Assembly: GCA_934635545.1 (NCBI GenBank)
Contig: CAKTZN010000032.1
Coordinates: forward strand, 1-12,928
Direction of reading: 5' to 3'
From: an uncultured Oscillospiraceae bacterium
Lineage (GTDB): Bacteria; Bacillota; Clostridia; Oscillospirales; Oscillospiraceae
DNA length: 12,928 nucleotides
Of this stretch, positions 865 to 11,014 are shown one piece after another. A program made the position numbers and the translations under genes. The number at the start of each line of letters is the position of its first letter. Within the stretch, counting starts at the first letter, position 1. The notes beneath the pieces were generated by a model. The model was not told the DNA's origin. It saw only the letters and a program-made list of their open reading frames with translations, and did no database searches.

Positions 865-2781
865 TCATGCCCTGTCCGGCTCGTTCAGCAGCCGCCAGAG
901 CTGCGTGCGGCTGATCCCCAGCAGCTTCGCGGCCTTGGTTTTATTGCCGCCGGCCTCCGCCACGGCGAACTGCGCCTCCTGCACCGTGAGCCTCTTCCGG
1001 GATGGGGCGGCAAGCTCCTTGATGTCGGGGATCACGGCCACCGGCGAATTGTTCAGCAGCGCGGCGATATCCTTGCAGGCCAGCACCTTCTCATAGGCGC
1101 TCAGGGCAAAAATGCGGTGGACAAAGTTTTGCAGCTCACGGACATTTCCCGGCCACTGATAGCTCAGCAGGTATTTTTCCGCGTCCTCGGTCAGCTCACC
1201 GGTGAATTTCAGATTGTACTTCTCCTCATACTGCCGGAGGAAGCTTTTGATCAGCGGCATGATGTCGGACTTCCGCTCACGCAGCGGCGGGACGACGAGG
1301 AAGACCGTATTCAGCCGGTAGAAGAGATCCTGACGGAAGCGGCCCTCCGCCGCCTCGCGGCTGATATCCTTATGGCTGGCGGCGATCATGCGCACGTCCA
1401 CGGGGATGATGGTGTCGCTGCCGATCCGGCGGACCTCCTTCTCCTGCAGCACGCGGAGCAGCGCGCTCTGGGAGGCGGGAGACAGCTCCCCCACCTCGTC
1501 CAGGAACACCGTGCCCTTATGGGCCAGCTCGAAGATGCCCGGCTTTCCGCCCTTTTTCGCACCGGTGAAGGCGCCCTCGGAATAGCCGAACAGCTCACTC
1601 TGCAGCAGCGTATCCGGCAGAGCGGCGCAGTTGATGGCGTAAAAGGGCTCCTTGCAGCGGCTGCTCTCGTTGTGGATGCACTGGGCGAACAGCTCTTTTC
1701 CCACGCCGCTCTCGCCGTAAATCAGAATATTGGAGTCGAATTTGGCGCACTGCTGGGTCTGGGCCTTGCACATCCGGATGGCCAGGCTGTGGCCCTTGAT
1801 GTCCTCCAGGGAGAATTTGGCGTACTGGCCCTTTTTATACAGCTCGGAGCGGATCAGCTTTTCCTCCTCCACAACGTTGGAGGACTTGCGCAGGAATACG
1901 AACGCCTCGGGCTCGTCGTTGGAGTTGTTCAGCACGCGGGAGTTCAGCAGCACACGGGTGCCGCCCTCCACCTCCACCACCTCGTTGCGGATGTCCCGCT
2001 TCAGCACCTGGCTCCAGTCCAGGCTGGGCAGGCGGCTCTGGATATTGATGCGGTCCTTGCTTTCGTTCAGCGGGATGCCCAGGATGTTGTGGGCATATTT
2101 GTTGATCCACTCCACACCGAAGCGGCTGTTGATGTTGATGATCCCCTCATTCTTGTCGTCCATGATGGTTTCCATCTTTTTGCTGTGCTCCGCCTGCTTC
2201 TTCCGGATCTCCACGATCCGGGCCGCCTCGTTGATGGAATCCCGCATGGCATCCTTGCCCACCAGCAGCGGTGAGCACCGCTCGTGCAGCTCACGGGCGC
2301 GGCGGATGCCGTTATGGCCGGTGAAGAGGATGCGCTTGCGCAGCAGCACGTCGTCCACCACCCGGTAGTAGTCGTCCATGTCGTGGTAGCTGAGCACCTC
2401 CGGCCAGCAGCCGAACAGCTCGTTGATGTAGTGGGGCAGCTCCTCGATCTTCAGCAGGCTGTTGCTCTCGTGAAGCAGCAGCGTGATCTCGTCCTGCCGC
2501 CGGATGCCGTATTTCAGCGCGGAATCCAGCACATCCTGCAGATTTGGCTCCACGGTGATCAGGGGGACGCTTACATAGTCCTTGATCAGGTTGCAGGTAT
2601 AGCCCCGGGCCACGATGGCCTCGTAGCCCATTTTTTCGATCTGCTCGGCCCGCTGGCGCAGAATATCGTATGAAAAGTCACTGCCGTACTGCACGACGGA
2701 GGTGTTTTCAAATTCGTTGGCAAATTGGTCGTCGTATTTCTCGAACCGGTCCTGCCATGTCAATATGGCTATTTTTTTCAT
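865..2781 (-). CDS. Sigma-54-dependent transcriptional activator, PrpR-N / PAS / AAA+ / Fis HTH
   Basis: This 638-residue enhancer-binding protein would activate sigma-54 RNA polymerase in response to a small ligand. Domains in order: a PrpR-type N-terminal sensor (about 1-190, containing YTCNLIKDYVSVPLITVEP), a linker and PAS-like region (about 200-310), and an AAA+ motor (about 325-555). The motor has Walker A GESGVGKE (356-363), the sigma-54-contacting GAFTGA loop (403-408), Walker B VFLDE (425-429) and PGNVREL (544-550). A Fis-type helix-turn-helix follows (about 600-633, ending LGISRTQLWRLL). The ATG at 2781 is preferred over 2787 because GAGGG sits 6 bases upstream of it but directly touches the earlier ATG. 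A long upstream in-frame extension would cross the promoter and is rejected. Intact GAFTGA means it should be a true sigma-54 activator. The only good -24/-12 promoter I found is upstream of the dehydrogenase at 9195, which makes that operon its likely target. The ligand is unknown; other PrpR-N proteins respond to organic acids or their products. Confidence 0.93.
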   Translation of the reverse strand: MKKIAILTWQDRFEKYDDQFANEFENTSVVQYGSDFSYDILRQRAEQIEKMGYEAIVARGYTCNLIKDYVSVPLITVEPNLQDVLDSALKYGIRRQDEITLLLHESNSLLKIEELPHYINELFGCWPEVLSYHDMDDYYRVVDDVLLRKRILFTGHNGIRRARELHERCSPLLVGKDAMRDSINEAARIVEIRKKQAEHSKKMETIMDDKNEGIININSRFGVEWINKYAHNILGIPLNESKDRINIQSRLPSLDWSQVLKRDIRNEVVEVEGGTRVLLNSRVLNNSNDEPEAFVFLRKSSNVVEEEKLIRSELYKKGQYAKFSLEDIKGHSLAIRMCKAQTQQCAKFDSNILIYGESGVGKELFAQCIHNESSRCKEPFYAINCAALPDTLLQSELFGYSEGAFTGAKKGGKPGIFELAHKGTVFLDEVGELSPASQSALLRVLQEKEVRRIGSDTIIPVDVRMIAASHKDISREAAEGRFRQDLFYRLNTVFLVVPPLRERKSDIMPLIKSFLRQYEEKYNLKFTGELTEDAEKYLLSYQWPGNVRELQNFVHRIFALSAYEKVLACKDIAALLNNSPVAVIPDIKELAAPSRKRLTVQEAQFAVAEAGGNKTKAAKLLGISRTQLWRLLNEPDRA

Positions 2782-2843
2782 GGTCATCCCTCGCTTGTTT
2801 CCGGCGGCGCTGCCGTGCCGTTTTCTGTGAATAAGCTGCCAGA

Positions 2844-2872
2844 ATTGTACCACGCCCCGCCTGTTTTCGCAA
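2844..2872 (-). promoter_or_regulatory. Sigma-A promoter of the activator gene
   Basis: On the minus strand TTGCGA (2867-2872) and TACAAT (2844-2849) are separated by 17 bases. A TG one base before the -10 gives an extended -10, TGGTACAAT. The activator's ribosome site lies about 50 bases downstream. This lets the activator be expressed independently of the operon it is predicted to control. Confidence 0.7.
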
Positions 2873-2908
2873 CCGGAGGGACGCGGCGGACTGCGCCCCG
2901 CAACGGCA

Positions 2909-2941
2909 AAGAGATACCCCGCAGGCCGCAGGATATCTCTT
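2909..2941 (-). terminator. Hairpin terminator after the cupin gene
   Basis: An 8-bp outer stem AAGAGATA/TATCTCTT encloses a further CCTGC/GCGGG stem. On the minus strand it is followed by only a short, weak T-rich run. It lies just downstream of the cupin stop and just upstream of the activator's promoter, so it most likely ends the operon transcript. The palindrome could also act from the other strand. Confidence 0.6.
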
Positions 2942-2976
2942 CGCGGCGGTTCGTCTGTCTGCGGAAAGCCCAGGGG

Positions 2977-3345
2977 TTACAGCGCCACCTGGCTGCCGTA
3001 GATAAACAGGATCTCCAGAGAACCGCCCTCTTCATATTCAAACACATGCCACTCACGAGGGGGGATATGGAGCGTCATGTCCTTTTCCAGCAGGATCTTG
3101 TTGGGCAGGTCGTCCTTGCTGGGCCCGAAGCGCACCCAGGCTCTGTCGGAGGAGAGGATCTGCACCGTCTCCTCGGCGTGCATATGGGGCTCCATGGGGC
3201 CGGCCTCCGCGCAGTAGCGGCAATAGCCGATGTTCAGGATCCGGCTGTCGGACAGGTAGCCGTCCTCCGTCTTGCCCACGATCTTCTGCATGAATCTGCC
3301 GGGCAGAAGCTGCTCGGGAACGTCCTTGCGCACGATCAATTCCAT
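2977..3345 (-). CDS. Small single-domain cupin protein
   Basis: A 122-residue protein consisting of one cupin barrel. The metal-binding motif is visible as HMHAEE (His54, His56, Glu59), and the second motif supplies His100 in PPREWHVF. The three histidines and one glutamate usually hold Fe, Mn, Zn or Ni. Single cupins of this size are isomerases, decarboxylases, dioxygenases or ligand-binding proteins, and nothing in the sequence picks one. The ATG at 3345 follows AAAGGAG by 9 bases. An out-of-frame ATG lies a few bases upstream. It is the last gene of the operon, 26 bases after the ASCH gene and just before a hairpin. That position suggests an accessory step in handling the imported carboxylate, but this is inference. 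Confidence 0.8.
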   Translation of the reverse strand: MELIVRKDVPEQLLPGRFMQKIVGKTEDGYLSDSRILNIGYCRYCAEAGPMEPHMHAEETVQILSSDRAWVRFGPSKDDLPNKILLEKDMTLHIPPREWHVFEYEEGGSLEILFIYGSQVAL

Positions 3346-3371
3346 GTGTCATTGCTCCTTTCGTATTTCAT

Positions 3372-3974
3372 TCATTTTGTTGCCGGGATATGTGATCCCG
3401 GCAAATAGGCCACCCGGAACTGCTCAAACAGCACCTGGTTTTCCGGGCTGTCTTCAAGGCCGATCTTCTGCCAGACCTCCCGGAACCGGTCAAGACGGGC
3501 GGTCTTCCACGCCTCAGCATCCGGATAGCCCTCTATGGCCGCCAGCCGGTCTGTCACCTCCGCGAACTTGCAGTGCTCCACCGACACCGTCTGCACGACG
3601 CAGATGGGAGTGCGGTCACGGCCGCAAAGGACATAGAAGGCGCCGGGCTGCGGCAGAGGACGGTCATGGCGGGTGAAGTAGTCCACGGAGAAGGACTCGC
3701 CCGAGATCTCGCCCCGGCGCACCCTTTCCGCCAGATCCTTCCCGCCGGCGGGCAGTGTCCAGATCTGGAGGGCGGCACCTGCCGCCTCCGGCGATCCCGC
3801 CGTGAACCGGTCCCACATCGTCTGGATCCGGCGATCCCGCCATTTTCCGGCGCAGATCTGCCAGGTGGGAACGGCGGCAAAGAGCAGGCTGACCGCCATG
3901 ATGCCCCAGCGGCCCGTAACGGCGCCATAGATGAAAAAGCCATACCACACGGCGATCCTGATCCACTTGCCCAT
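3372..3974 (-). CDS. ASCH-domain protein with an N-terminal membrane anchor
   Basis: A 200-residue protein. Residues about 5-41 form two hydrophobic segments around a short turn, followed by a basic stretch (KWRDRR), so the rest should be cytoplasmic. Residues about 50-191 match clostridial ASCH proteins: TMWDRFTAG, LQIWTLP, DLAERVRRG, PICVVQTVSVEHCKFAEVTDRLAAIEGY and a terminal FEQFRVAYL. ASCH domains have a PUA-like fold that binds RNA or nucleosides; one member, YqfB, hydrolyses N4-acetylcytidine. In ungapped alignment the usual GxKxxT motif reads GEISGE, so the catalytic-type Lys and Thr are missing. The start at 3974 has an excellent AAAGGAGG site 6 bases upstream, so the membrane part is genuinely translated. 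It lies 41 bases after tctA and 26 before the cupin. The fused membrane anchor is unusual for this family. Function unknown. Confidence 0.8.
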   Translation of the reverse strand: MGKWIRIAVWYGFFIYGAVTGRWGIMAVSLLFAAVPTWQICAGKWRDRRIQTMWDRFTAGSPEAAGAALQIWTLPAGGKDLAERVRRGEISGESFSVDYFTRHDRPLPQPGAFYVLCGRDRTPICVVQTVSVEHCKFAEVTDRLAAIEGYPDAEAWKTARLDRFREVWQKIGLEDSPENQVLFEQFRVAYLPGSHIPATK

Positions 3975-4015
3975 GACAGTCCTCCTTTCGTCAGTCCGGA
4001 ACGCGCCGGGTCACA

Positions 4016-5512
4016 TTACACCTGCTGCGGCTTCTTTCCCTTGGAGAGCACGTTCAGGATCTTGGGGATGAACAGCATCACCACGGCGAAAATGAGCAGG
4101 CCGACGGCGATGGGCTTGCTGAACAGGGAGAGGAAATTGCCGTTGTTGGCGATCAGCGCGGTGCGCATGTTGCTTTCGATGATCTTGCCCAGGATGAAGC
4201 CCAGCACGATGGGCGGCAGGGGGAAGCCGTTATTCACCAGGAAGTAGCCCAGCAGACCGATGACCACCAGCACCCAGCTATCGAACAGGCGGTTATTCAC
4301 CGTGATGGTGCCGATCACGCACATCAGCAGGATGATGGGGAACAGCAGGTTCATGGGCACCATCAGCAGCTTGATGAACACGCGCATCAGGCCCATCTCC
4401 ATGATGAACATGATGATATTGGCCAGCAGATAGGCGGCAAAGATGACACCCACCACACCCTTGCTGGTCTGGAACAGCAGCGGGCCGGGCTGCAGGCCAT
4501 GCACCACCAGGCCGCCCAGCAGGATGGAGGTCACCAGGTCGCCGGGAATGCCCAGCGTCAGCATGGGGATCAGCGCGCCGCCGCAGCAGGCGTTGTTGGC
4601 GGACTCGGAGGCCACGATGCCCTCGGGGATGCCGGTGCCGAATTTCTCCGGATGCTTGGAGGTCTGCATGGCCACGGAATAGGACAGCATCGACGCCGTC
4701 GCCTGGCCGATACCGGGTAGGATGCCGATAAACGTACCGATGATGGAGCCGGTAATATGGGTCTTGGTGGTGCCGCGGAGCGTTTCCCGGGTGGGGAGCA
4801 GGCGGATCTTGCCGGGGGCGAGGGTATCAAACTTCTGGGCGATGGTCTTGAGCTGCGTCAGCACCTCGGTGATGGCGAACAGGCCCATCAGCACGTCCAA
4901 CTGGGCCAGGCCGCCGTTCAACTGCCAGGCGCCGAAGGTCAGGCGGGGCGCGCCGGTAACGGCGTCCATGCCCACCATGGCCAGCAGCATGCCGACGATG
5001 GCGGAGATGAAGCCCTTGATCATATCCTTGGAGCAGAGGCTCACCACGACGGACAGGCCCATCAGGCCCATGGCGAAGTACTCCCACGCGCCGAACTTCA
5101 GGGCGATCTTGGCCAACTCCGGCGCGATGATCACCAGGGCCAGGGCGCTGATAAGGCCGCCGATGAAGGAGGAGAACACGCCCAGGGTCAGGGCCTCTCC
5201 CGCCCGTCCGTTGCGGGCCATGGGTGAGCCGTCAAAGCAGGTCACGATGGACGCCGGGGAGCCGGGGATATTCAGCAAGACTGCGGCGATCAGGCCGCCG
5301 GAGATACCGCCGACGTAGATGCCGATCAGGGTGGTGATGCCCTCCGACGCCTGCATGGCAAAGGTGAAGGGCAGGATCAGGGAGACGCCGAGCGCTGCCG
5401 TCAGGCCCGGTATGGCGCCGAAGACCATACCGAAGAAGACACCGGCGGCCAGCAGCAGGAACAGCATGGGCTCCTGTATAAAATTAGCCAGTCCCGAAAA
5501 AAGAGTTCCCAT
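4016..5512 (-). CDS. tctA: Tripartite tricarboxylate transporter large permease, TctA family
   Basis: The large membrane subunit of a binding-protein-dependent secondary transporter for carboxylates. The 498 residues match the usual TctA length of about 500. Family signatures are clear: FGAIPGLTAALGVSLILPF (about 32-49), GIYVGGISGGLIAAVLLNIPGSPAS (about 64-88), GILPGIGQA, and TLGIPGDLVTSILLGGLVVHGLQPGPLLF. There are about ten or more hydrophobic helices. The ATG at 5512 follows AAGGAG with 6-7 bases spacing; an earlier in-frame GTG at 5629 would translate the hairpin region and is rejected. It would use the ion gradient to take up the ligand delivered by TctC together with TctB. It lies 258 bases after tctC, separated by three hairpins, which suggests its level is set separately. 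The substrate cannot be read from sequence. Confidence 0.95.
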   Translation of the reverse strand: MGTLFSGLANFIQEPMLFLLLAAGVFFGMVFGAIPGLTAALGVSLILPFTFAMQASEGITTLIGIYVGGISGGLIAAVLLNIPGSPASIVTCFDGSPMARNGRAGEALTLGVFSSFIGGLISALALVIIAPELAKIALKFGAWEYFAMGLMGLSVVVSLCSKDMIKGFISAIVGMLLAMVGMDAVTGAPRLTFGAWQLNGGLAQLDVLMGLFAITEVLTQLKTIAQKFDTLAPGKIRLLPTRETLRGTTKTHITGSIIGTFIGILPGIGQATASMLSYSVAMQTSKHPEKFGTGIPEGIVASESANNACCGGALIPMLTLGIPGDLVTSILLGGLVVHGLQPGPLLFQTSKGVVGVIFAAYLLANIIMFIMEMGLMRVFIKLLMVPMNLLFPIILLMCVIGTITVNNRLFDSWVLVVIGLLGYFLVNNGFPLPPIVLGFILGKIIESNMRTALIANNGNFLSLFSKPIAVGLLIFAVVMLFIPKILNVLSKGKKPQQV

Positions 5513-5607
5513 CTCTTTCTCCTTTCTATTTTTATGGATCAGCCGTCCGCCGCGGCGGGGCGGCTGTGGATCTTCAGATTCAAATGGTTTTGCTTGGATG
5601 CCGCGTT

Positions 5608-5647
5608 CTCCGGGAGCGGCCGGCGGCACTGCCGGCCGTTCCCGGAG
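5608..5647 (-). repeat. Large inverted repeat between tctC and tctA, hairpin 1
   Basis: Two 17-base arms (5608-5624 and 5631-5647) flank a 6-base loop. One position pairs as G-U when read on the plus strand and is a C-A mismatch on the minus strand. A small AGCGC/GCGCT stem (5646-5658) follows directly. There is no T-run on the minus-strand exit side, so it does not look like a standard terminator. Confidence 0.8.
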
Positions 5648-5662
5648 CGCTGTGCGCTGTTT

Positions 5663-5699
5663 CCGTCAGGCGATCCCGGCTGCCGGGATCGCCTGACGG
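5663..5699 (-). repeat. Perfect 17-bp inverted repeat between tctC and tctA, hairpin 2
   Basis: Arms 5663-5679 and 5683-5699 are perfect reverse complements around a 3-base loop. The stem starts CCGTCAGG and closes with CCCGG. It lies about 70 bases after the tctC stop. There is no T-run on either side. Placed after a binding-protein gene, it most likely protects the tctC message or limits read-through into tctA. Confidence 0.85.
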
Positions 5700-5770
5700 C
5701 GGTCAGCCATTCAGGTTCATGATAGCCGCGTACTTGATCGTAACGGGAAAGGTCCTCGTTTCCGGGTCTC

Positions 5771-6754
5771 TTATTTGACCAGGGCAGCCCACTTCTCCAG
5801 ATCAGCAGCGATCGTCGCGGTCTTGCCGGCCAGCTCATCGCCGGTGGCAAAGGCGGGCGTGTAGCCCAGGCCCTCCAGCGTCTCCTTGCAGGAGGCATCA
5901 TTGCAGGCGGCCTGGAAGGCGTTGACCAGGTACTCCTTCACCTGGGCGTCGATGCCGCCGGTGGCCCAGATGGAGCGGTGCAGGCCAAACTCGATATCAT
6001 AGCCCTGCTCCTTGAAGGTAGGGGCATCGATGTAGCTGACGCGCTCCGCGGAGGAGACGCCCAGCACACGCATCTCGCCGGAATCCACCAGCGCCTTGAT
6101 CTCGGACACCTGGCAGACAACGGCGTCGTTCTCGCCGCCCAGGACGGCCGTTCTGGACTTGGAGCCGCCGTCATAGGGGACGTAGGTGAACTCATAGCCG
6201 GCCACATCCGCCAGGCCATAGGTGAAGAACTCGTTGGAGCCGCCCTTGGAGGTGGAGGCGATGGTGCAGGAGGCACCGGCGCCCTTGGCGTAGTTCACGA
6301 AATCATCGAAGGTCTGCCAGTCGGACGACGCAGCCACGGCCAGCACGTTGGGGTCTTCCGCCACCACGCAGATGGGGGTCAGCTCCTCGTACAGGGGGTC
6401 GGACAGGGCGCCGGACATGTACTGGGCGATCCACGCCTCAGGGGCCACGGAGACCAGCGTATAGCCGTCCGGCTCGGCATTGTAGCACTCATAGCTGCCG
6501 GTCAGGGCGCTGGCACCCTCAATATTGGTGACGACCATGGTCTGGCCGTCGAGATTGATGGCGCTGGCCACGCTGCGCACCATCAGGTCGGTGCCGCCGC
6601 CGGCGGAATAGGGAACGATGCAGTTCACCGCTTCGGTGGGGAAGTTCAGGGTATTTTCGCCGTCAGCGGCAGGGGCGTCACCGCCGCCGCAGCCAACCAG
6701 GCACATCAGAGCCAATACCAGGCTCATTACCACTACCATTGCTTTTTTGATCAT
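5771..6754 (-). CDS. tctC: Tripartite tricarboxylate transporter substrate-binding lipoprotein, TctC/Bug family
   Basis: The extracytoplasmic solute receptor, 327 residues. Residues 1-22 are a lipoprotein signal: MIKK, a hydrophobic core, then the lipobox LVGC with Cys22, so the mature protein is lipid-anchored on the outer face of the membrane. A glycine/aspartate linker follows. The Bug-family ligand loop appears as IVPYSAGGGTDLMVRS, and later GGSNEFFTYGLADVAGYEFTYVPYDGG is also typical. Bug receptors grip carboxylate groups through water-mediated contacts, so the ligand is probably a mono-, di- or tricarboxylate. The ATG at 6754 follows AAGGAGG by 7 bases. It lies 49 bases after tctB and is followed by the hairpin cluster. 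The order B-C-A differs from the more usual C-B-A. Confidence 0.95.
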   Translation of the reverse strand: MIKKAMVVVMSLVLALMCLVGCGGGDAPAADGENTLNFPTEAVNCIVPYSAGGGTDLMVRSVASAINLDGQTMVVTNIEGASALTGSYECYNAEPDGYTLVSVAPEAWIAQYMSGALSDPLYEELTPICVVAEDPNVLAVAASSDWQTFDDFVNYAKGAGASCTIASTSKGGSNEFFTYGLADVAGYEFTYVPYDGGSKSRTAVLGGENDAVVCQVSEIKALVDSGEMRVLGVSSAERVSYIDAPTFKEQGYDIEFGLHRSIWATGGIDAQVKEYLVNAFQAACNDASCKETLEGLGYTPAFATGDELAGKTATIAADLEKWAALVK

Positions 6755-6803
6755 GTTGAATCCTCCTTGTTACTCTTCTGTTGATACGATCATTCTGCTA
6801 TCA

Positions 6804-7298
6804 TTATTTGAACAAACTGCCGTTTGGTAGTCTGACGCTGAGAACGCGGGTGAACAGCAGCTTTGTGGCAATGGTCGCCACCACCGCGATCACGATATAG
6901 ACGACGATGCGAAGGATCTTCGTCTTTTTGTCGCAGTTCAGCTTGCCCATCTTCCAGCTATAGAAGATGATGAGGCCCGCCTCGAACAGGAATGTGGTGA
7001 TATTGAAGCCCACGGGCTTCATCAGCAGCAGATACAGCACCAGGGCCGCCAGCGTGACGACACCCTCGCGGCTCCAGATGGGCGCGCATTCCGTCTCGTC
7101 CTTTTTGATCACCGCCTTGATGATCATGGCCACCGCCAGGACTGCCAGGATCGCCAGCCAGATCCAGACATAGACATCAGGCCGGGTGATCCAGTACATG
7201 GTGCCGGTGATCTTTACGTCCATGGTGGCCAGAACGCCGGCCACGCAGGCCACCAGGATCGCGATCCCGTATATTACGTCTCGTTTCCATTTTGCCAT
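6804..7298 (-). CDS. tctB: Tripartite tricarboxylate transporter small membrane subunit, TctB family
   Basis: The small four-helix membrane partner of TctA, 164 residues. Hydrophobic segments lie near residues 8-25, 43-61, 82-111 (probably two passes close together) and 128-148, separated by a charged loop containing KKDETE. The GFNITTFLFEAGLIIFYSW stretch is typical of TctB. The ATG at 7298 is chosen over the ATG at 7304 because AAGGAGG lies 7 bases before the former and only 1 before the latter. It begins 27 bases after the decarboxylase-family gene and ends 49 bases before tctC, so it belongs to the same transcript. TctB proteins are poorly conserved, but the position between carboxylate genes and tctC settles the call. 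Confidence 0.9.
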   Translation of the reverse strand: MAKWKRDVIYGIAILVACVAGVLATMDVKITGTMYWITRPDVYVWIWLAILAVLAVAMIIKAVIKKDETECAPIWSREGVVTLAALVLYLLLMKPVGFNITTFLFEAGLIIFYSWKMGKLNCDKKTKILRIVVYIVIAVVATIATKLLFTRVLSVRLPNGSLFK

Positions 7299-7325
7299 AG
7301 CCATACCTCCTTATATTGCCGCCGG

Positions 7326-8186
7326 TCATTCCACCACATGCTGGGCGTACACATCCGCGTGGGAGTACACCGTCAGCTTCTGGGCACCGACATATTTTAC
7401 GCAGCCAAGGTCGTACAGATACTGAAGGATCCGGGCCTGGGCGGGGGCGTCCTTCCACTCGGGCCGGTGCCAGAACACCTTGCCGCGGCAGAACACGCTC
7501 TCTGTGGGAGGACAGTCGGAATTATCGATATCCTCGGGCGCCAGATAGCCCTTCGTTCCCCAGACGGAATAGCAGGCGTCTGCCGTCAGGAAGGGCGCCT
7601 CCGTATGGGGCATATACTTGAAGTGTACCTTGCCCTCGATCTCCGGGTTGGCCAGCACCTTCTTCAGTGTGTCCAGATCCTCCGGCTCTTCCTCTACACG
7701 CACCTGCATATCCAGGAAGGTGAAATCGTGGGTGGCGATGCTGCCGCGGCTGATGCCGTCCAGCTCGTCCATGGTCTTGATAAAACCAAACAGCTTTGAA
7801 TAGCCCAACTGCTCACGTCCGGTCAGGATGGCATCGGGCACATCCTCCCACAGGACGGGCTCAAAGAACGCCTTGAAATCGTCCTTCTCGCCCCTGAAGT
7901 GCACGGGCACCTCCACATGCACGATATCGTAGCCGCCGCCCTGGAGCCAGGCAATGTTCCGCAGGGCGGAAAAGGTCACCACGATATGGGGGGACAGCAG
8001 CTCGTACTTCTCCGGCAGGATCTCCTGCAGCTTTTCGGCGGGCACCTCATACACGACCTTGTAATGAGTGGTCTTGGTGGGGGCGTCATATACCCAGCGG
8101 CCGCCCTCCGGCTTCTGGCGGGGCGTTACGCAGGGGCCGAAGACGGCGGGCATCATGTACATTTTTCCTTCTTCAAACTGAAACAT
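7326..8186 (-). CDS. Acetoacetate decarboxylase family protein
   Basis: A 286-residue cytoplasmic member of the acetoacetate decarboxylase superfamily. Enzymes of this family form a Schiff base between a lysine and a 3-keto acid, releasing CO2 and a ketone. The segment GREQLGYSKLFG aligns with the GREL..YPKK segment of Clostridium acetobutylicum Adc, and Lys131 falls on its catalytic Lys115. The catalytic lysine is therefore kept. The protein is about 40 residues longer than classic Adc and otherwise divergent, so the substrate may not be acetoacetate; some relatives act as hydratase-aldolases or cyclases. The ATG at 8186 follows AAAGGA by 10-11 bases; an upstream in-frame ATG at 8222 lacks a good ribosome site. 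It lies 43 bases after the dehydrogenase and 27 before tctB. Its pairing with a 3-hydroxy-acid-type dehydrogenase supports a 3-keto acid substrate. Confidence 0.85.
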   Translation of the reverse strand: MFQFEEGKMYMMPAVFGPCVTPRQKPEGGRWVYDAPTKTTHYKVVYEVPAEKLQEILPEKYELLSPHIVVTFSALRNIAWLQGGGYDIVHVEVPVHFRGEKDDFKAFFEPVLWEDVPDAILTGREQLGYSKLFGFIKTMDELDGISRGSIATHDFTFLDMQVRVEEEPEDLDTLKKVLANPEIEGKVHFKYMPHTEAPFLTADACYSVWGTKGYLAPEDIDNSDCPPTESVFCRGKVFWHRPEWKDAPAQARILQYLYDLGCVKYVGAQKLTVYSHADVYAQHVVE

Positions 8187-8229
8187 CGTATTCTTTCCTT
8201 TCTGGATGACGATCCGGTCCACTTCCCTG

Positions 8230-9195
8230 TTACACAGGGTCCTTCATGAAGTCACGCACCAGGGCGAAGGACTTGCAGAGCTGCTCGTCCCGCTTGCTCA
8301 GAAGCGCCTCGATATCCTGGCCGGTATAGTCATAGAAGCCCTTGCCGGTCTTGATGCCGAACTCGTGGGCCTGCTCCATTCTGACCAGCGTGGCGGGCAG
8401 CTCCACCTCCGGCGGCATCTGGTAGCTGTGGTTGCGGTAGTTGTTGATGGTCATGTCCACGCCGCCAAAGTCGATCTTCTTGCACAGGCCCAGCACCATG
8501 GCGCGGGGGATGAAGCTCATTCTGGCGGCAAAGTCGATGTCCTCCGCCGTGCAGTAGTCGTTGTCCAGCAGGAAGAACACCTCGCGGTTGATGCACTGCA
8601 GCAGGCGGTTCACGATGTAGCCCTTGATGAATTTCTTCATCTGCACCGGCTCCTTGCCGCACTTGCGCAGCACCGCCAGCACGGTGTCCGCCAGCTCCTG
8701 GGGCGCGCTTTCGCTCTTGACCACCTCCACCAGCGGGACCAACTGGGCCGGGGCGTACCAGTGCATGATAAGCTGGCGGTCCAGCAGCTCCGGCGGAACG
8801 ACCTCGAAAATGTTCAGGGCGGAGGTGTTGGAGGCGATGATGGCGTCCTTGTTCAGGGCGGCCAGCTCCGTGTAGAGGGAGATCTTGGCGTCCACCTTTT
8901 CCACGATGCACTCCACGATCAACTGGGCGTCCTCCACCGCGGCCTTCAGGGAATCGGCAAAGCGGACGCGTCCGGCCACCGCAGCCTCTTCCTCCGGCGC
9001 GATATCGCCCATGGAAACGGACGTGGCCACGCCGTCACGCACTCTGACTCTGGCCAGCTCACGGTTCTTTTCCACCGGCTCCCAGACATCCACTATATAG
9101 CCGCCCATGGCAAACGCCTGCGCGATGCCCGGCCCCATGGTGCCGGCGCCGATCACGGCAATTTTTTTCATTTCTTCCGGCGAGTATTTGTACAT
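8230..9195 (-). CDS. 3-hydroxyacyl-CoA dehydrogenase family protein (3-hydroxy acid oxidation)
   Basis: A 321-residue NAD-dependent dehydrogenase of the 3-hydroxybutyryl-CoA / L-gulonate dehydrogenase family. It has a Rossmann domain with GAGTMGPGIA (16-25), an acidic residue at the end of the second strand (EP, 39-40), IASNTSALNI, and the catalytic pair His145 (MHWYAP) and Glu157 (LVEVV), with Asn196 in VNRLL. The C-terminal domain ends GIKTGKGFYDY. The usual HFFNP reads HWYAP, with Asn replaced by Ala, so the substrate may be a free 3-hydroxy acid or unusual acyl-CoA rather than standard 3-hydroxybutyryl-CoA. The ATG at 9195 follows AAAGGAGG by 8 bases; the ATG at 9237 lies upstream of the ribosome site and inside the promoter. 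It is the first gene of the operon, behind a sigma-54 promoter. The family is certain, the substrate is inferred. Confidence 0.9.
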   Translation of the reverse strand: MYKYSPEEMKKIAVIGAGTMGPGIAQAFAMGGYIVDVWEPVEKNRELARVRVRDGVATSVSMGDIAPEEEAAVAGRVRFADSLKAAVEDAQLIVECIVEKVDAKISLYTELAALNKDAIIASNTSALNIFEVVPPELLDRQLIMHWYAPAQLVPLVEVVKSESAPQELADTVLAVLRKCGKEPVQMKKFIKGYIVNRLLQCINREVFFLLDNDYCTAEDIDFAARMSFIPRAMVLGLCKKIDFGGVDMTINNYRNHSYQMPPEVELPATLVRMEQAHEFGIKTGKGFYDYTGQDIEALLSKRDEQLCKSFALVRDFMKDPV

Positions 9196-9232
9196 AATGC
9201 TGCCCTCCTTTAGGTTTTCACCTCGTATATAC

Positions 9233-9248
9233 AGCAATTACCATGCCA
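9233..9248 (-). promoter_or_regulatory. Sigma-54 (-24/-12) promoter of the dehydrogenase/decarboxylase/Tct operon
   Basis: The minus strand reads TGGCAT-N5-TTGCT. The consensus is TGGCAC-N5-TTGCW, so 10 of 11 fixed positions match, with GG and GC at exactly the required spacing. The predicted transcript starts near 9222, leaving a leader of about 26 bases that contains AAAGGAGG before the ATG at 9195. A sigma-54 activator gene lies at the other end of the same locus. Confidence 0.8.
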
Positions 9249-9534: not shown

Positions 9535-9580
9535 TCCCATTTTCCCGCGCAGAAGTAACATTCTGTGCGGGAAAATGGGA
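9535..9580. repeat. 20-bp inverted repeat in the control region
   Basis: Arms 9535-9554 and 9561-9580 pair over 20 positions with a 6-base loop. The single imperfect position is G-U on the plus strand and C-A on the minus strand. On the minus strand it is followed by GACGCCGGGC and then a T5 run, which could make it a second, backup terminator for the acetyltransferase transcript. Confidence 0.7.
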
Positions 9581-9588
9581 TATGAAGA

Positions 9589-9629
9589 AGCGGAAGGCCC
9601 GCCTTGCAAAGCAAGGCGGGCCTTCCGCT
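9589..9629 (-). terminator. Terminator hairpin after the acetyltransferase gene
   Basis: Perfect 19-bp arms (9589-9607 and 9611-9629) flank a 3-base loop, 17 bases past the acetyltransferase stop. The minus-strand exit reads TCTTCATA, only mildly T-rich. The very stable stem and position make a terminator the best reading. Confidence 0.7.
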
Positions 9630-9645
9630 CTATCTGACGATATGG

Positions 9646-10299
9646 TCATTGTTCCGCTTTCAGCCCGCAGATGCTCTCCTGCAGGCGCCGCAAAAAGCGG
9701 CCGGCGTGGGCACCGTCCATCTGGGTGTGATGGAACTGGAACGACAGCTTCAGCGTCGATTTGAAAAGGCCCCTGTGGTACCGGCCCCAGATGAGGAAGG
9801 GGTTGTTGAAGATGCCGCTGTTCATACCGACGGCACCGTCAAGCTCGGTATCCACGATGGCGGAGGTGCCGATGACCATGCTGTCGGTGAGATCATGGTT
9901 CTCGCAGCGCTCCGCCGCCTCACGCGTCAGGCGCAGATAATCGGCATTGAACTGCGCCAGGCCGGCGGAGTAAGGGATATCGCAGGAGGTGACCTCGCCG
10001 TTCCGGTTCTTCACGATGGTATTCACCGCCAGGGTGTCATATCGCAGCAGGTCGCGGCCCACCGGGAGCGTATAGAACTCCCGGATCTCCTCCGCCGCCC
10101 GACCGATGCACCAGCACAGCAGCATGTTGAATTTCAGCCCTTTCTTCCGGCTGAGCCGGACAAGGGGCGTCACATCCAGCGTTTTGAAAAAGGTCACCAT
10201 GGGGTTGGGCGCGTCCATCCAGAGGGCGTAAGCCTCTGCCCGCGCGGTGGTTTTGGGATCGACGATGACCGGCTTCCTCGGGTGGTCTTGAAAATTCAT
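9646..10299 (-). CDS. Chloramphenicol acetyltransferase-fold acyltransferase (CatA-like)
   Basis: A 217-residue protein, the same length as type A chloramphenicol acetyltransferases (about 213-220). The active-site motif HHTQMDG (190-196) supplies His191 as the general base and Asp195, matching HHAVCDG in classic Cat. The YALWMDAPNPMVTFFKTLDVTPLV region and GAVGMNSGIFNNPFLIWGRY fit the fold. Overall it is divergent from known resistance enzymes, so an acetyl-CoA-dependent O-acetyltransferase of unknown substrate is safer than a resistance call. The ATG at 10299 follows GGAGG by about 10 bases; longer in-frame starts overlap the upstream TetR gene and a terminator. It lies 85 bases after the TetR gene, with an intrinsic terminator between, and no clear promoter of its own. 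It may be expressed only by read-through, or controlled by attenuation. Confidence 0.85.
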   Translation of the reverse strand: MNFQDHPRKPVIVDPKTTARAEAYALWMDAPNPMVTFFKTLDVTPLVRLSRKKGLKFNMLLCWCIGRAAEEIREFYTLPVGRDLLRYDTLAVNTIVKNRNGEVTSCDIPYSAGLAQFNADYLRLTREAAERCENHDLTDSMVIGTSAIVDTELDGAVGMNSGIFNNPFLIWGRYHRGLFKSTLKLSFQFHHTQMDGAHAGRFLRRLQESICGLKAEQ

Positions 10300-10318
10300 G
10301 GTTCTGGTTCCTCCTCTC

Positions 10319-10358
10319 AAAAAAAGCAGCGCGTGACCGGTTTTACGATCCGCGCTGC
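10319..10358 (-). terminator. Intrinsic terminator between the TetR gene and the acetyltransferase
   Basis: On the minus strand GCAGCGCG and CGCGCTGC (10326-10333 and 10351-10358) form an 8-bp GC-rich stem around a 17-base loop, followed immediately by seven Ts. The acetyltransferase ribosome site starts within a few bases of the T-run. This is the cleanest terminator in the window and sits where an attenuator would be. Confidence 0.8.
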
Positions 10359-10384
10359 GTCTTTGCGTCTGGCTGATTTGGTTT

Positions 10385-11014
10385 CTATTGGGCAGATGGG
10401 TGTACCATGCGGAAGAAAAGAGACACATGCTGCCGGAGCTTTTCCAGGCACTCCGCCTCTCTCTCCGGCTGGCGGTCGCAGATCCCGATGAGTGTCAGGA
10501 CAGGCGACACATACAGCATGGCCAGGGCGTCCGGATCCTCCGCGCAGAGTTCGCCGGAGGCGATCAGTGCCCGGAAAATACCGGCATGGTAGGCCAGCAT
10601 GCGATCCACATACCGCTGGGAATACAGCGCCGCCAGCTCTGTTGAGCGAAACTGCTCGATGGTCATCATGCGGCGAAAGCGGCTGATGGTCTCGTCATGC
10701 AGAGAGTAGTCGAAGATCTGCCGCACCTTTTCAAACAGGGCCTCCTCCGTGGTCTGCGTAAACACCGGAATATCCCGGGCCACGTCCTGGACATGGATGT
10801 CGATCTTCCCGGTGTCCGCCTGGTACCGCGCCGCCGTGGATTCCACGATGGCGTCAAAAATAGCCCGTTTACCGGGAAAATGATTGTAGAGGGATGGCGC
10901 CTTGATGCCCACCGCCTTTGCAATTTCACCCACGCTGACGGAATCGTAGCCCCGGACGGAAAACAGCTCCAGCGCCTTGTCAAGGATCCTCTGCTTCGTA
11001 TCTTCCTGCTTCAT
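10385..11014 (-). CDS. TetR/AcrR family transcriptional regulator (first of two)
   Basis: A 209-residue repressor-type protein. The N-terminal DNA-binding domain is typical: ILDKALELFSVRGYDSVSVGEIAKAVGIKAPSLYNHFPGKRAIFDAI (split here over residues 10-56), with the recognition helix near 38-46. The rest is a helical ligand-binding domain with no recognisable subfamily. The ATG at 11014 follows GGAGG by 6-7 bases. A strong promoter lies at 11049-11076, and a small dyad at 11031-11044 sits just downstream of the -10, where a bound TetR would block its own transcription. The acetyltransferase downstream is the natural second target, although a terminator separates them. The inducer is unknown. 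Confidence 0.92.
   Translation of the reverse strand: MKQEDTKQRILDKALELFSVRGYDSVSVGEIAKAVGIKAPSLYNHFPGKRAIFDAIVESTAARYQADTGKIDIHVQDVARDIPVFTQTTEEALFEKVRQIFDYSLHDETISRFRRMMTIEQFRSTELAALYSQRYVDRMLAYHAGIFRALIASGELCAEDPDALAMLYVSPVLTLIGICDRQPEREAECLEKLRQHVSLFFRMVHPSAQ

What the first reader, a model, noticed from the sequence alone, without database searches (positions are those of the whole stretch)
865..9248. Sigma-54-switched carboxylate operon with a probable 3-hydroxy acid decarboxylation route
Seen: one leftward gene series with a 3-hydroxyacyl-type dehydrogenase, an acetoacetate-decarboxylase-family protein with its catalytic Lys, a complete TctABC carboxylate importer, an ASCH protein and a cupin, plus a sigma-54 activator and an iron alcohol dehydrogenase. 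Known: such dehydrogenases make 3-keto acids or acyl-CoAs, and Adc-family enzymes decarboxylate 3-keto acids. Inference: an imported 3-hydroxy acid is oxidised, decarboxylated to a ketone, and the ketone may be reduced by the iron dehydrogenase, giving a redox-balanced route that also consumes a proton inside the cell. I know of no described pathway with this set of genes. No CoA ligase or transferase is visible, which favours a free acid over a CoA ester.
Basis: partly seen in the sequence, partly recalled or inferred. Interest (0 to 1): 0.75.

Follow-up and report, generated by a model that had tools for sequence, protein, structure and literature searches.

The report
Gut acid-decarboxylating butyrate-feeding operon
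A probable gut bacterium carries a switchable gene set that likely imports a small hydroxy acid, oxidises it, removes CO2 and feeds the product into a known butyrate-making route; the gene set recurs in a few relatives, but which acid it eats is not yet known.

Summary
The gene series is real and recurs: a dehydrogenase (HADH) directly before an acetoacetate-decarboxylase-family protein (ADC), with a carboxylate importer, in four other genomes. A sigma-54 site lies about 50 nt before HADH in five of six loci. HADH forms a clade beside the triacetate-forming dehydrogenase type of phloroglucinol breakdown, keeps catalytic residues and lacks CoA-binding ones, so it should act on a free 3-hydroxy acid. 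"No CoA enzyme" is a window-edge effect: relatives add CoA-transferase, 4-hydroxybutyryl-CoA dehydratase, acyl-CoA dehydrogenase and Etf, in three loci behind a divergent, weaker sigma-54-like site. The iron dehydrogenase groups with enzymes of AbfT-AbfD operons. Best reading: free 3-hydroxy acid, beta-oxo acid, CO2 plus succinic semialdehyde, 4-hydroxybutyrate, crotonyl-CoA, butyrate. If the product is succinic semialdehyde, the substrate should be 2-(hydroxymethyl)succinate (itamalate); this is inference. ADC lacks the glutamates of solvent-making ADCs. Known enzyme families, new combination; substrate untested.

The parts
9234..9248 (-). sigma-54 type -24/-12 site TGGCAT-N5-TTGC, about 50 nt upstream of HADH
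   Evidence: 1 mismatch; best upstream site also in L001, L002, L003, L146, not L004
9377..9560 (.). probable activator binding sites: five GTAAC/GTTAC half-sites, two of them in TGTAACA-N11-TGTTACA
   Evidence: 5 found, 0.78 expected, 1 of 1000 shuffles reaches it
8230..9195 (-). HADH: 3HCDH-family dehydrogenase, predicted NAD-dependent, for a free 3-hydroxy acid
   Evidence: S125, H145, E157, N196 kept; HBD Lys56 is Asp64, Asn221 column empty
7326..8186 (-). ADC: acetoacetate-decarboxylase-family enzyme with the Schiff-base Lys position kept (K132)
6804..7304 (-). TctB, small membrane subunit of carboxylate importer
   Evidence: PF07331
5771..6754 (-). TctC, solute-binding protein
   Evidence: PF03401
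5663..5699 (.). 18-bp perfect hairpin between TctC and TctA
4016..5512 (-). TctA, large membrane subunit
   Evidence: PF01970
3372..3974 (-). ASCH-domain protein; relatives at 32% in the same operon in L001 and L002
2977..3345 (-). cupin-like protein; no match in L001-L004 in the BLAST comparison
   Evidence: two relatives carry PF07883; no direct Pfam hit
865..2781 (-). PrpR_N / sigma-54 activator; relatives at 57-58% in the loci L001, L003 and L146
3..818 (-). iron alcohol dehydrogenase of the 4-hydroxybutyrate-dehydrogenase-like clade, cut by the window edge
   Evidence: L001 relative

Best explanation
A sigma-54-switched catabolic operon for a free 3-hydroxy carboxylate. TctABC imports the acid (domain evidence). 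HADH oxidises its 3-hydroxyl with NAD to a free beta-oxo acid (residue and clade evidence). ADC decarboxylates that beta-oxo acid through a Lys Schiff base (family evidence, inferred for this subfamily). The iron dehydrogenase reduces the product, most likely succinic semialdehyde, to 4-hydroxybutyrate (clade evidence), using the NADH from the first step. In relatives a CoA-transferase, 4-hydroxybutyryl-CoA dehydratase (AbfD), acyl-CoA dehydrogenase, EtfAB and enoyl-CoA hydratase then take it to crotonyl-CoA and on to butyrate or acetyl-CoA; in the window's own organism those genes are not visible and are assumed. If the product is succinic semialdehyde and ADC removes a beta-carboxyl, the beta-oxo acid should be 2-formylsuccinate and the imported acid 2-(hydroxymethyl)succinate (itamalate); this last step is inference. 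My confidence is about 0.6 for the route into 4-hydroxybutyrate and about 0.3 for itamalate.
For: HADH directly before ADC in L001-L004, the four ADC relatives closest to the window among 73 loci. L001: divergent AbfD-ACAD-EtfB-EtfA arm, FeADH-ECH-CoA-transferase at the operon end. L002: divergent ACAD-EtfB-EtfA, same operon end; AbfD on another contig. L004: AbfD, 4-hydroxybutyrate-CoA-transferase-like protein, HADH, ADC, FeADH in one stretch. L146: HADH (68%, contig end) divergent from AbfD-ACAD-EtfB-EtfA-activator. L001 AbfD matches 1u8v at 905 bits. Sigma-54 site before HADH in five of six loci, 0-3 of 300 shuffles reaching the score; reversed sites facing the AbfD/ACAD arm in L001, L002, L146, reached by 11, 24 and 2 of 500 shuffles; half-site enrichment in five loci, 0-19 of 1000 shuffles. 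HADH clade of 39 rows, support 99/98: Ser, Glu, Asn kept in 39 of 39, His in 38; HBD Lys56 replaced in 39 of 39, Asn221 column empty in 39. CsTfD has the same losses and acts on free 3-hydroxy-5-oxohexanoate (PMC10470551 section 8). FeADH clade of 11 rows, 97/98, with five enzymes that stand beside AbfT and AbfD genes. L135 has ADCs beside ApbA-family dehydrogenases and an aldehyde dehydrogenase, hinting at an aldehyde product.
Against: ADC lacks the residues matching E61, E76 and K116 of C. acetobutylicum ADC, so another Schiff-base reaction is possible. SDRs in L002 and L004 could serve the other enantiomer of a chiral secondary alcohol, which fits itamalate less well. L003 has a different FeADH in the operon; the 91% relative of the window FeADH stands elsewhere in that genome. 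An iron dehydrogenase between AbfT and AbfD in G343 (L169) falls outside the clade, on a long branch. AbfD is common (123 of 247 genomes of G001's family), so only neighbourhood counts. Relatives of the beta-keto-acid cleavage enzyme occur in all 7 genomes tested, so a beta-oxo acid might be handled by one of them too. The reversed sites have GA, not GC, at -12, and the L002 one is weak. L004 has no sigma-54 site before HADH. None of the 25 NCBIfam matches shown for the aldehyde dehydrogenase of L135 reaches its cut-off. The window's genome is not held.
Confidence: 0.58

Rival explanations
1. The substrate is a linear secondary 3-hydroxy acid such as 3-hydroxyadipate: HADH makes 3-oxoadipate, ADC makes levulinate, FeADH makes 4-hydroxyvalerate, and AbfD acts on 4-hydroxyvaleryl-CoA.
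For: TfD, the characterised type next to this clade, acts on a linear secondary 3-hydroxy acid; only 4 columns separate the two groups at the 85% level; SDRs near ADC could handle the other enantiomer.
Against: FeADH groups with enzymes of AbfT-AbfD operons, some of them beside a GABA-transaminase-like gene; L001 AbfD is 79-81% identical to the AbfDs of those operons; L135 carries an aldehyde dehydrogenase.
Confidence: 0.15
2. ADC is not a decarboxylase here but a Schiff-base aldolase or dehydratase, as in the Streptomyces bingchenggensis enzyme or MppR, acting on the oxidised acid in another way.
For: E61/E76/K116 equivalents are lost; 4zbt and MppR are among the fold matches; ApbA (ketopantoate reductase family) partners in L005/L133 and L135 could give 2-oxo acids.
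Confidence: 0.15
3. A plain 3-hydroxybutyrate (ketone body) route: 3-hydroxybutyrate to acetoacetate to acetone and isopropanol.
For: Family names alone.
Against: CsTfD has 0.02% relative activity on acetoacetate; FeADH is in the 4-hydroxybutyrate-type clade; ADC has lost the glutamates of the acetoacetate enzyme.
Confidence: 0.05
4. A lower branch of phloroglucinol breakdown with ADC in place of triacetate acetoacetate-lyase.
For: HADH stands beside the TfD type in the tree; all five relatives tested hold some beta-keto-acid cleavage enzyme relative.
Against: The ring-opening cyclase is not found at E up to 1e-15 in G001, G003, G004 and G595; G002 has a partial match of 41%. A carboxylate importer sits in the operon.
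Confidence: 0.04

Closest known systems
Triacetate-forming dehydrogenase (TfD) of Clostridium scatologenes phloroglucinol degradation (PMC10470551, section 8 and passages read)
   Same: 3HCDH family, Ser/His/Asn kept, CoA-binding Lys56 and Asn221 lost, next to an enzyme that disposes of the beta-oxo acid
   Different: separate clade; partner is ADC, not a beta-keto-acid cleavage enzyme; Glu/Asp where the TfD-type rows have Thr at the cofactor strand end (38 of 39 rows against 27 of 27); importer in operon; no ring-opening cyclase found in four of five relatives tested
4-aminobutyrate / succinate branch of gut butyrate synthesis: AbfH, CoA-transferase, AbfD (PMC5715108, PMC9403272, passages seen)
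   Same: 4-hydroxybutyrate-dehydrogenase-like enzyme, CoA-transferase, AbfD, acyl-CoA dehydrogenase with Etf
   Different: would be fed by an oxidised and decarboxylated imported acid rather than by GABA or succinyl-CoA
Acetoacetate decarboxylase of Clostridium acetobutylicum type (3bh2)
   Same: fold, Schiff-base Lys, Arg-Glu before it
   Different: E61, E76 and K116 equivalents are Thr, Ile and Leu; nearest structure is 3cmb, for which I know of no shown function
Nicotinate fermentation of Eubacterium barkeri, 2-(hydroxymethyl)glutarate / 2-formylglutarate (recalled, not from a call)
   Same: 2-(hydroxymethyl) dicarboxylate and 2-formyl dicarboxylate as redox pair
   Different: one carbon longer, other enzyme families, no decarboxylation at that step

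Membership tests
TfD-type free 3-hydroxy-acid dehydrogenase | catalytic Ser, His, Asn of HBD kept | tested here: met
   S125, H145, N196 in window
TfD-type free 3-hydroxy-acid dehydrogenase | HBD CoA-binding Lys56 and Asn221 absent | tested here: met
   Lys56 is Asp64, Asn221 column empty; no Lys at that column in 39 of 39 rows
TfD-type free 3-hydroxy-acid dehydrogenase | within the TfD group and beside cyclase and BKACE | tested here: not met
   own clade 99/98; no full cyclase in five relatives tested
Acetoacetate decarboxylase family PF06314 | domain score above gathering cut-off, ADC fold | tested here: met
   63.7 bits against 29.8
Acetoacetate decarboxylase family PF06314 | Schiff-base Lys115 | tested here: met
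   K132 in 19 of 19
Solvent-making acetoacetate decarboxylase proper | E61, E76 and K116 (roles recalled) | tested here: not met
   T72, I89, L133, from the HMMER alignment
4-hydroxybutyrate dehydrogenase (AbfH) | groups with Fe-ADHs of AbfT-AbfD operons | tested here: met
   clade of 11, 97/98, in a tree of 17 rows with some long branches; window copy truncated
4-hydroxybutyrate dehydrogenase (AbfH) | reduces succinic semialdehyde | not testable with these tools
   needs an assay
TctABC tripartite tricarboxylate transporter | TctA, TctB, TctC all present | tested here: met
PrpR (propionate regulator, TIGR02329) | score above equivalog cut-off | tested here: not met
   336.8 bits against 499.2; PrpR-like, not PrpR
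sigma-54-dependent operon | -24/-12 site conserved, activator with PF00158 | tested here: met
   site in five of six loci
4-hydroxybutyryl-CoA dehydratase (AbfD) pathway | AbfD in the same locus | tested here: inconclusive
   L001, L004, L146 yes; L002 and L003 elsewhere in the genome; window not visible

The most novel reading that the evidence does not exclude
A dedicated catabolic pathway for 2-(hydroxymethyl)succinate (itamalate, a hydrate of itaconate): import, oxidation to 2-formylsuccinate, Schiff-base decarboxylation to succinic semialdehyde by an ADC subfamily without the classical glutamates, and fermentation to butyrate; that is, a further entry into the gut 4-hydroxybutyrate-butyrate branch.
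Probability: 0.28. Interest if true: 0.78.

Novelty: new variant of a known kind. Interest (0 to 1): 0.6.

Why it matters
One published overview names acetyl-CoA, glutarate, 4-aminobutyrate and lysine routes to butyrate in the colon, and another describes the succinate and 2-oxoglutarate branches (passages of PMC5715108 and PMC9403272). A route in which an imported hydroxy acid is oxidised, decarboxylated and then passed to 4-hydroxybutyrate would add an entry point and would give a functional setting to an ADC subfamily without the classical glutamates. It also shows an exchange of modules: a similar dehydrogenase is paired with a cleavage enzyme in phloroglucinol-type clusters and with a decarboxylase here. 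The prediction narrows the substrate enough to be tested with two purified enzymes.

Tried and rejected
Own-genome search: no genome is held for the window. A viral-contig scan gave no HADH relative. NCBIfam gave no match above its cut-off for HADH, ADC or FeADH among the rows shown. Cupin and ASCH gave no functional clue. The amidohydrolase after the L004 cluster matches an amidase and dihydroorotase-like entries, not clearly informative. The genome-level AbfD count was dropped as evidence because AbfD is common. Phloroglucinol route rejected. Searches for more window-clade HADHs gave few: 6 of 247 genomes of G001's family at E up to 1e-110, three of them at 66-68% to P0043, and 1 of 394 of G003's order; ADC 1 of 6 genomes of G001's genus. 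Papers: formylsuccinate, itamalate, hydroxymethylsuccinate or paraconate gave three listings, none on this route by title and abstract; 4-hydroxybutyrate dehydrogenase with acetoacetate decarboxylase and gut gave none; two of ADC, AbfD, tripartite tricarboxylate or 3-hydroxyacyl-CoA dehydrogenase family gave one genome paper; further listings. So no description was found by those searches of an open-licence library; that is not proof that none is in print.

Rows dropped: the HADH tree used rows among P0035-P0071 of the 120 listed (of 7447 that passed, 7999 scored), left out five duplicate loci, rows under 290 aa and identical sequences; the residue count also dropped L068. Cyclase and BKACE labels in that tree are from short motif matches in the locus. 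ADC alignment A1 used 18 of the 34 listed relatives plus the window. The neighbour count of distant ADCs used 69 of 73 loci.
Full report
What is there. The window holds one leftward series: HADH, ADC, TctB, TctC, TctA, ASCH, a cupin-like gene, a PrpR-like sigma-54 activator, and an iron alcohol dehydrogenase cut by the window edge. Gaps are short apart from one of 258 nt with a perfect hairpin after TctC and one of 195 nt before the activator gene. Upstream of HADH lie two strong hairpins (9535-9580, 9589-9629), which may be terminators of the CatA-like gene beyond.

Is it conserved? A scan of genome contigs with the ADC alignment gave 73 loci. The four closest (57-79%) all have HADH directly before ADC: L001, L002, L003 (Oscillibacter sp. 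1-3) and L004 (a Tissierellia MAG). L001-L003 have TctABC; L004 has a TRAP transporter. L001 and L002 also have an ASCH gene (32% to the window) and an iron dehydrogenase at 58-59%. The ADC is rare: 34 proteins in the large protein collection (that search reaches only relatives sharing exact words) and 4 of 400 genomes of G003's family at E up to 1e-20.

Control. A -24/-12 site is the best match upstream of HADH in the window, L001, L002, L003 and L146, about 50 nt before the start codon, with 0 to 3 of 300 shuffles reaching the score; L004 has none (260 of 300). GTAAC/GTTAC half-sites are enriched there: 5, 4, 4, 2 and 6 in window, L001, L002, L003 and L146, against 0.2-0.8 expected; 1, 0, 1, 19 and 0 of 1000 shuffles reach these. 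In L001, L002 and L146 a reversed site (TGGCA[CT]-N5-TTGAA) faces the AbfD or ACAD arm; 11, 24 and 2 of 500 shuffles do as well. Its -12 part departs from consensus, so shared control of both arms is suggestive, not shown. The pattern weights are recalled. A relative of the activator (57-58%) lies in L001, L003 and L146.

HADH. 7447 of 7999 scored candidates pass the cut-off. In G003's family, 49 of 200 genomes have a relative at E up to 1e-60; of 29 short loci read besides G003, 27 show a cyclase-type or BKACE-type motif, 15 of them BKACE. Longer stretches show cyclase, HADH and BKACE in a row in several genomes and a molybdopterin enzyme in some. This is like the layout published for phloroglucinol degradation (PMC10470551, section 8 and passages); I did not test the ring reductase. 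The tree of 71 rows puts window, L001-L004 and 34 metagenomic rows in one clade of 39 (99/98), apart from the cyclase/BKACE rows. The published TfD lost HBD Lys56 and Asn221 and acts on a free acid; the window clade shows the same loss (39 of 39) with catalytic residues kept (Ser, Glu, Asn 39 of 39, His 38 of 39). At HBD Asp31, at the end of the second strand, the window clade has Glu or Asp in 38 of 39 rows and the TfD type Thr in 27 of 27, with Pro (38 of 39) against Arg next to it; this would fit NAD use by the window enzyme, which is inference.

Where the product goes. L001: AbfD-ACAD-EtfB-EtfA divergent from the operon, FeADH-ECH-CoA-transferase at its end. L002: ACAD-EtfB-EtfA divergent, FeADH-ECH-CoA-transferase at the end; AbfD on another contig. 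L146: HADH at a contig end, divergent from AbfD-ACAD-EtfB-EtfA-activator. L004: AbfD, 4-hydroxybutyrate-CoA-transferase-like protein, HADH, ADC, SDR, TRAP and FeADH in one stretch. L003: a different iron dehydrogenase, MaoC and CoA-transferase in the operon; ECH, CoA-transferase, AbfD, ACAD and Etf in a separate cluster of the same genome. L001 AbfD is a clear match to the solved enzyme 1u8v (905 bits); a TASCFQRCVG stretch is present in all five AbfDs checked and an HRQSYGGCK stretch in four of five, not in L004. L004's transferase matches 3eh7 and 3gk7. The iron dehydrogenases of window, L001, L002, L004, L005 and G003 group with five from operons that hold AbfT and AbfD genes (clade of 11, 97/98; L169, from an AbfT-AbfD stretch of G343, falls outside on a long branch). 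In L165 the next gene has 4-aminobutyrate transaminase models as best NCBIfam matches, below their cut-offs (495.7 against 506.65 bits for TIGR00700); L167 and L168 have genes with similar letters in the same place. AbfD as such is common (123 of 247 genomes), and relatives of the beta-keto-acid cleavage enzyme occur in all 7 genomes tested.

Which acid. If the iron dehydrogenase meets succinic semialdehyde and ADC removes a carboxyl beta to the carbonyl, the oxo acid should be 2-formylsuccinate and the imported acid 2-(hydroxymethyl)succinate. A cluster in G082 has two ADC relatives, an ApbA-family dehydrogenase on either side (one divergent) and an aldehyde dehydrogenase of no specific NCBIfam assignment, which fits an aldehyde product. 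Against it, SDRs in L002 and L004 and SDR-type genes within 6 kb of ADC in 35 of 69 loci, of which one was identified by NCBIfam, would suit a chiral secondary alcohol. I give itamalate about 0.3.

Verdict. Real, conserved in a few genomes, probably co-regulated, and not found described in the searches made. The enzymes are of known families; their combination seems new and the substrate is open.

Noticed in passing
   Followed up: no
L133 / L005 (Flavonifractor plautii) and L135: ADC relatives (28-40%) beside ketopantoate-reductase-family dehydrogenases; L135 has two ADCs, two such dehydrogenases (one divergent) and an aldehyde dehydrogenase.
   Followed up: partly
L006, L007, L134: ADC relatives (35-40%) near AtuA-family proteins (L007 by its first letters only), a citrate-transporter-like gene in L006.
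   Followed up: no
L005-L073: SDR-type genes within 6 kb of ADC relatives in 35 of 69 loci counted, median distance 173 bp.
   Followed up: partly
window 9646-11014: CatA-like O-acetyltransferase family 2 (above NCBIfam cut-off) and a TetR-family regulator, upstream of the operon behind hairpins.
   Followed up: no
L136:8872-10059: The Oscillibacter sp. 1-3 genome carries a 91% relative of the window iron dehydrogenase away from its ADC operon.
   Followed up: partly
window 5663-5699: Perfect 18-bp hairpin between TctC and TctA, of a kind that may set the binding protein's transcript level (the role is recalled).
   Followed up: no
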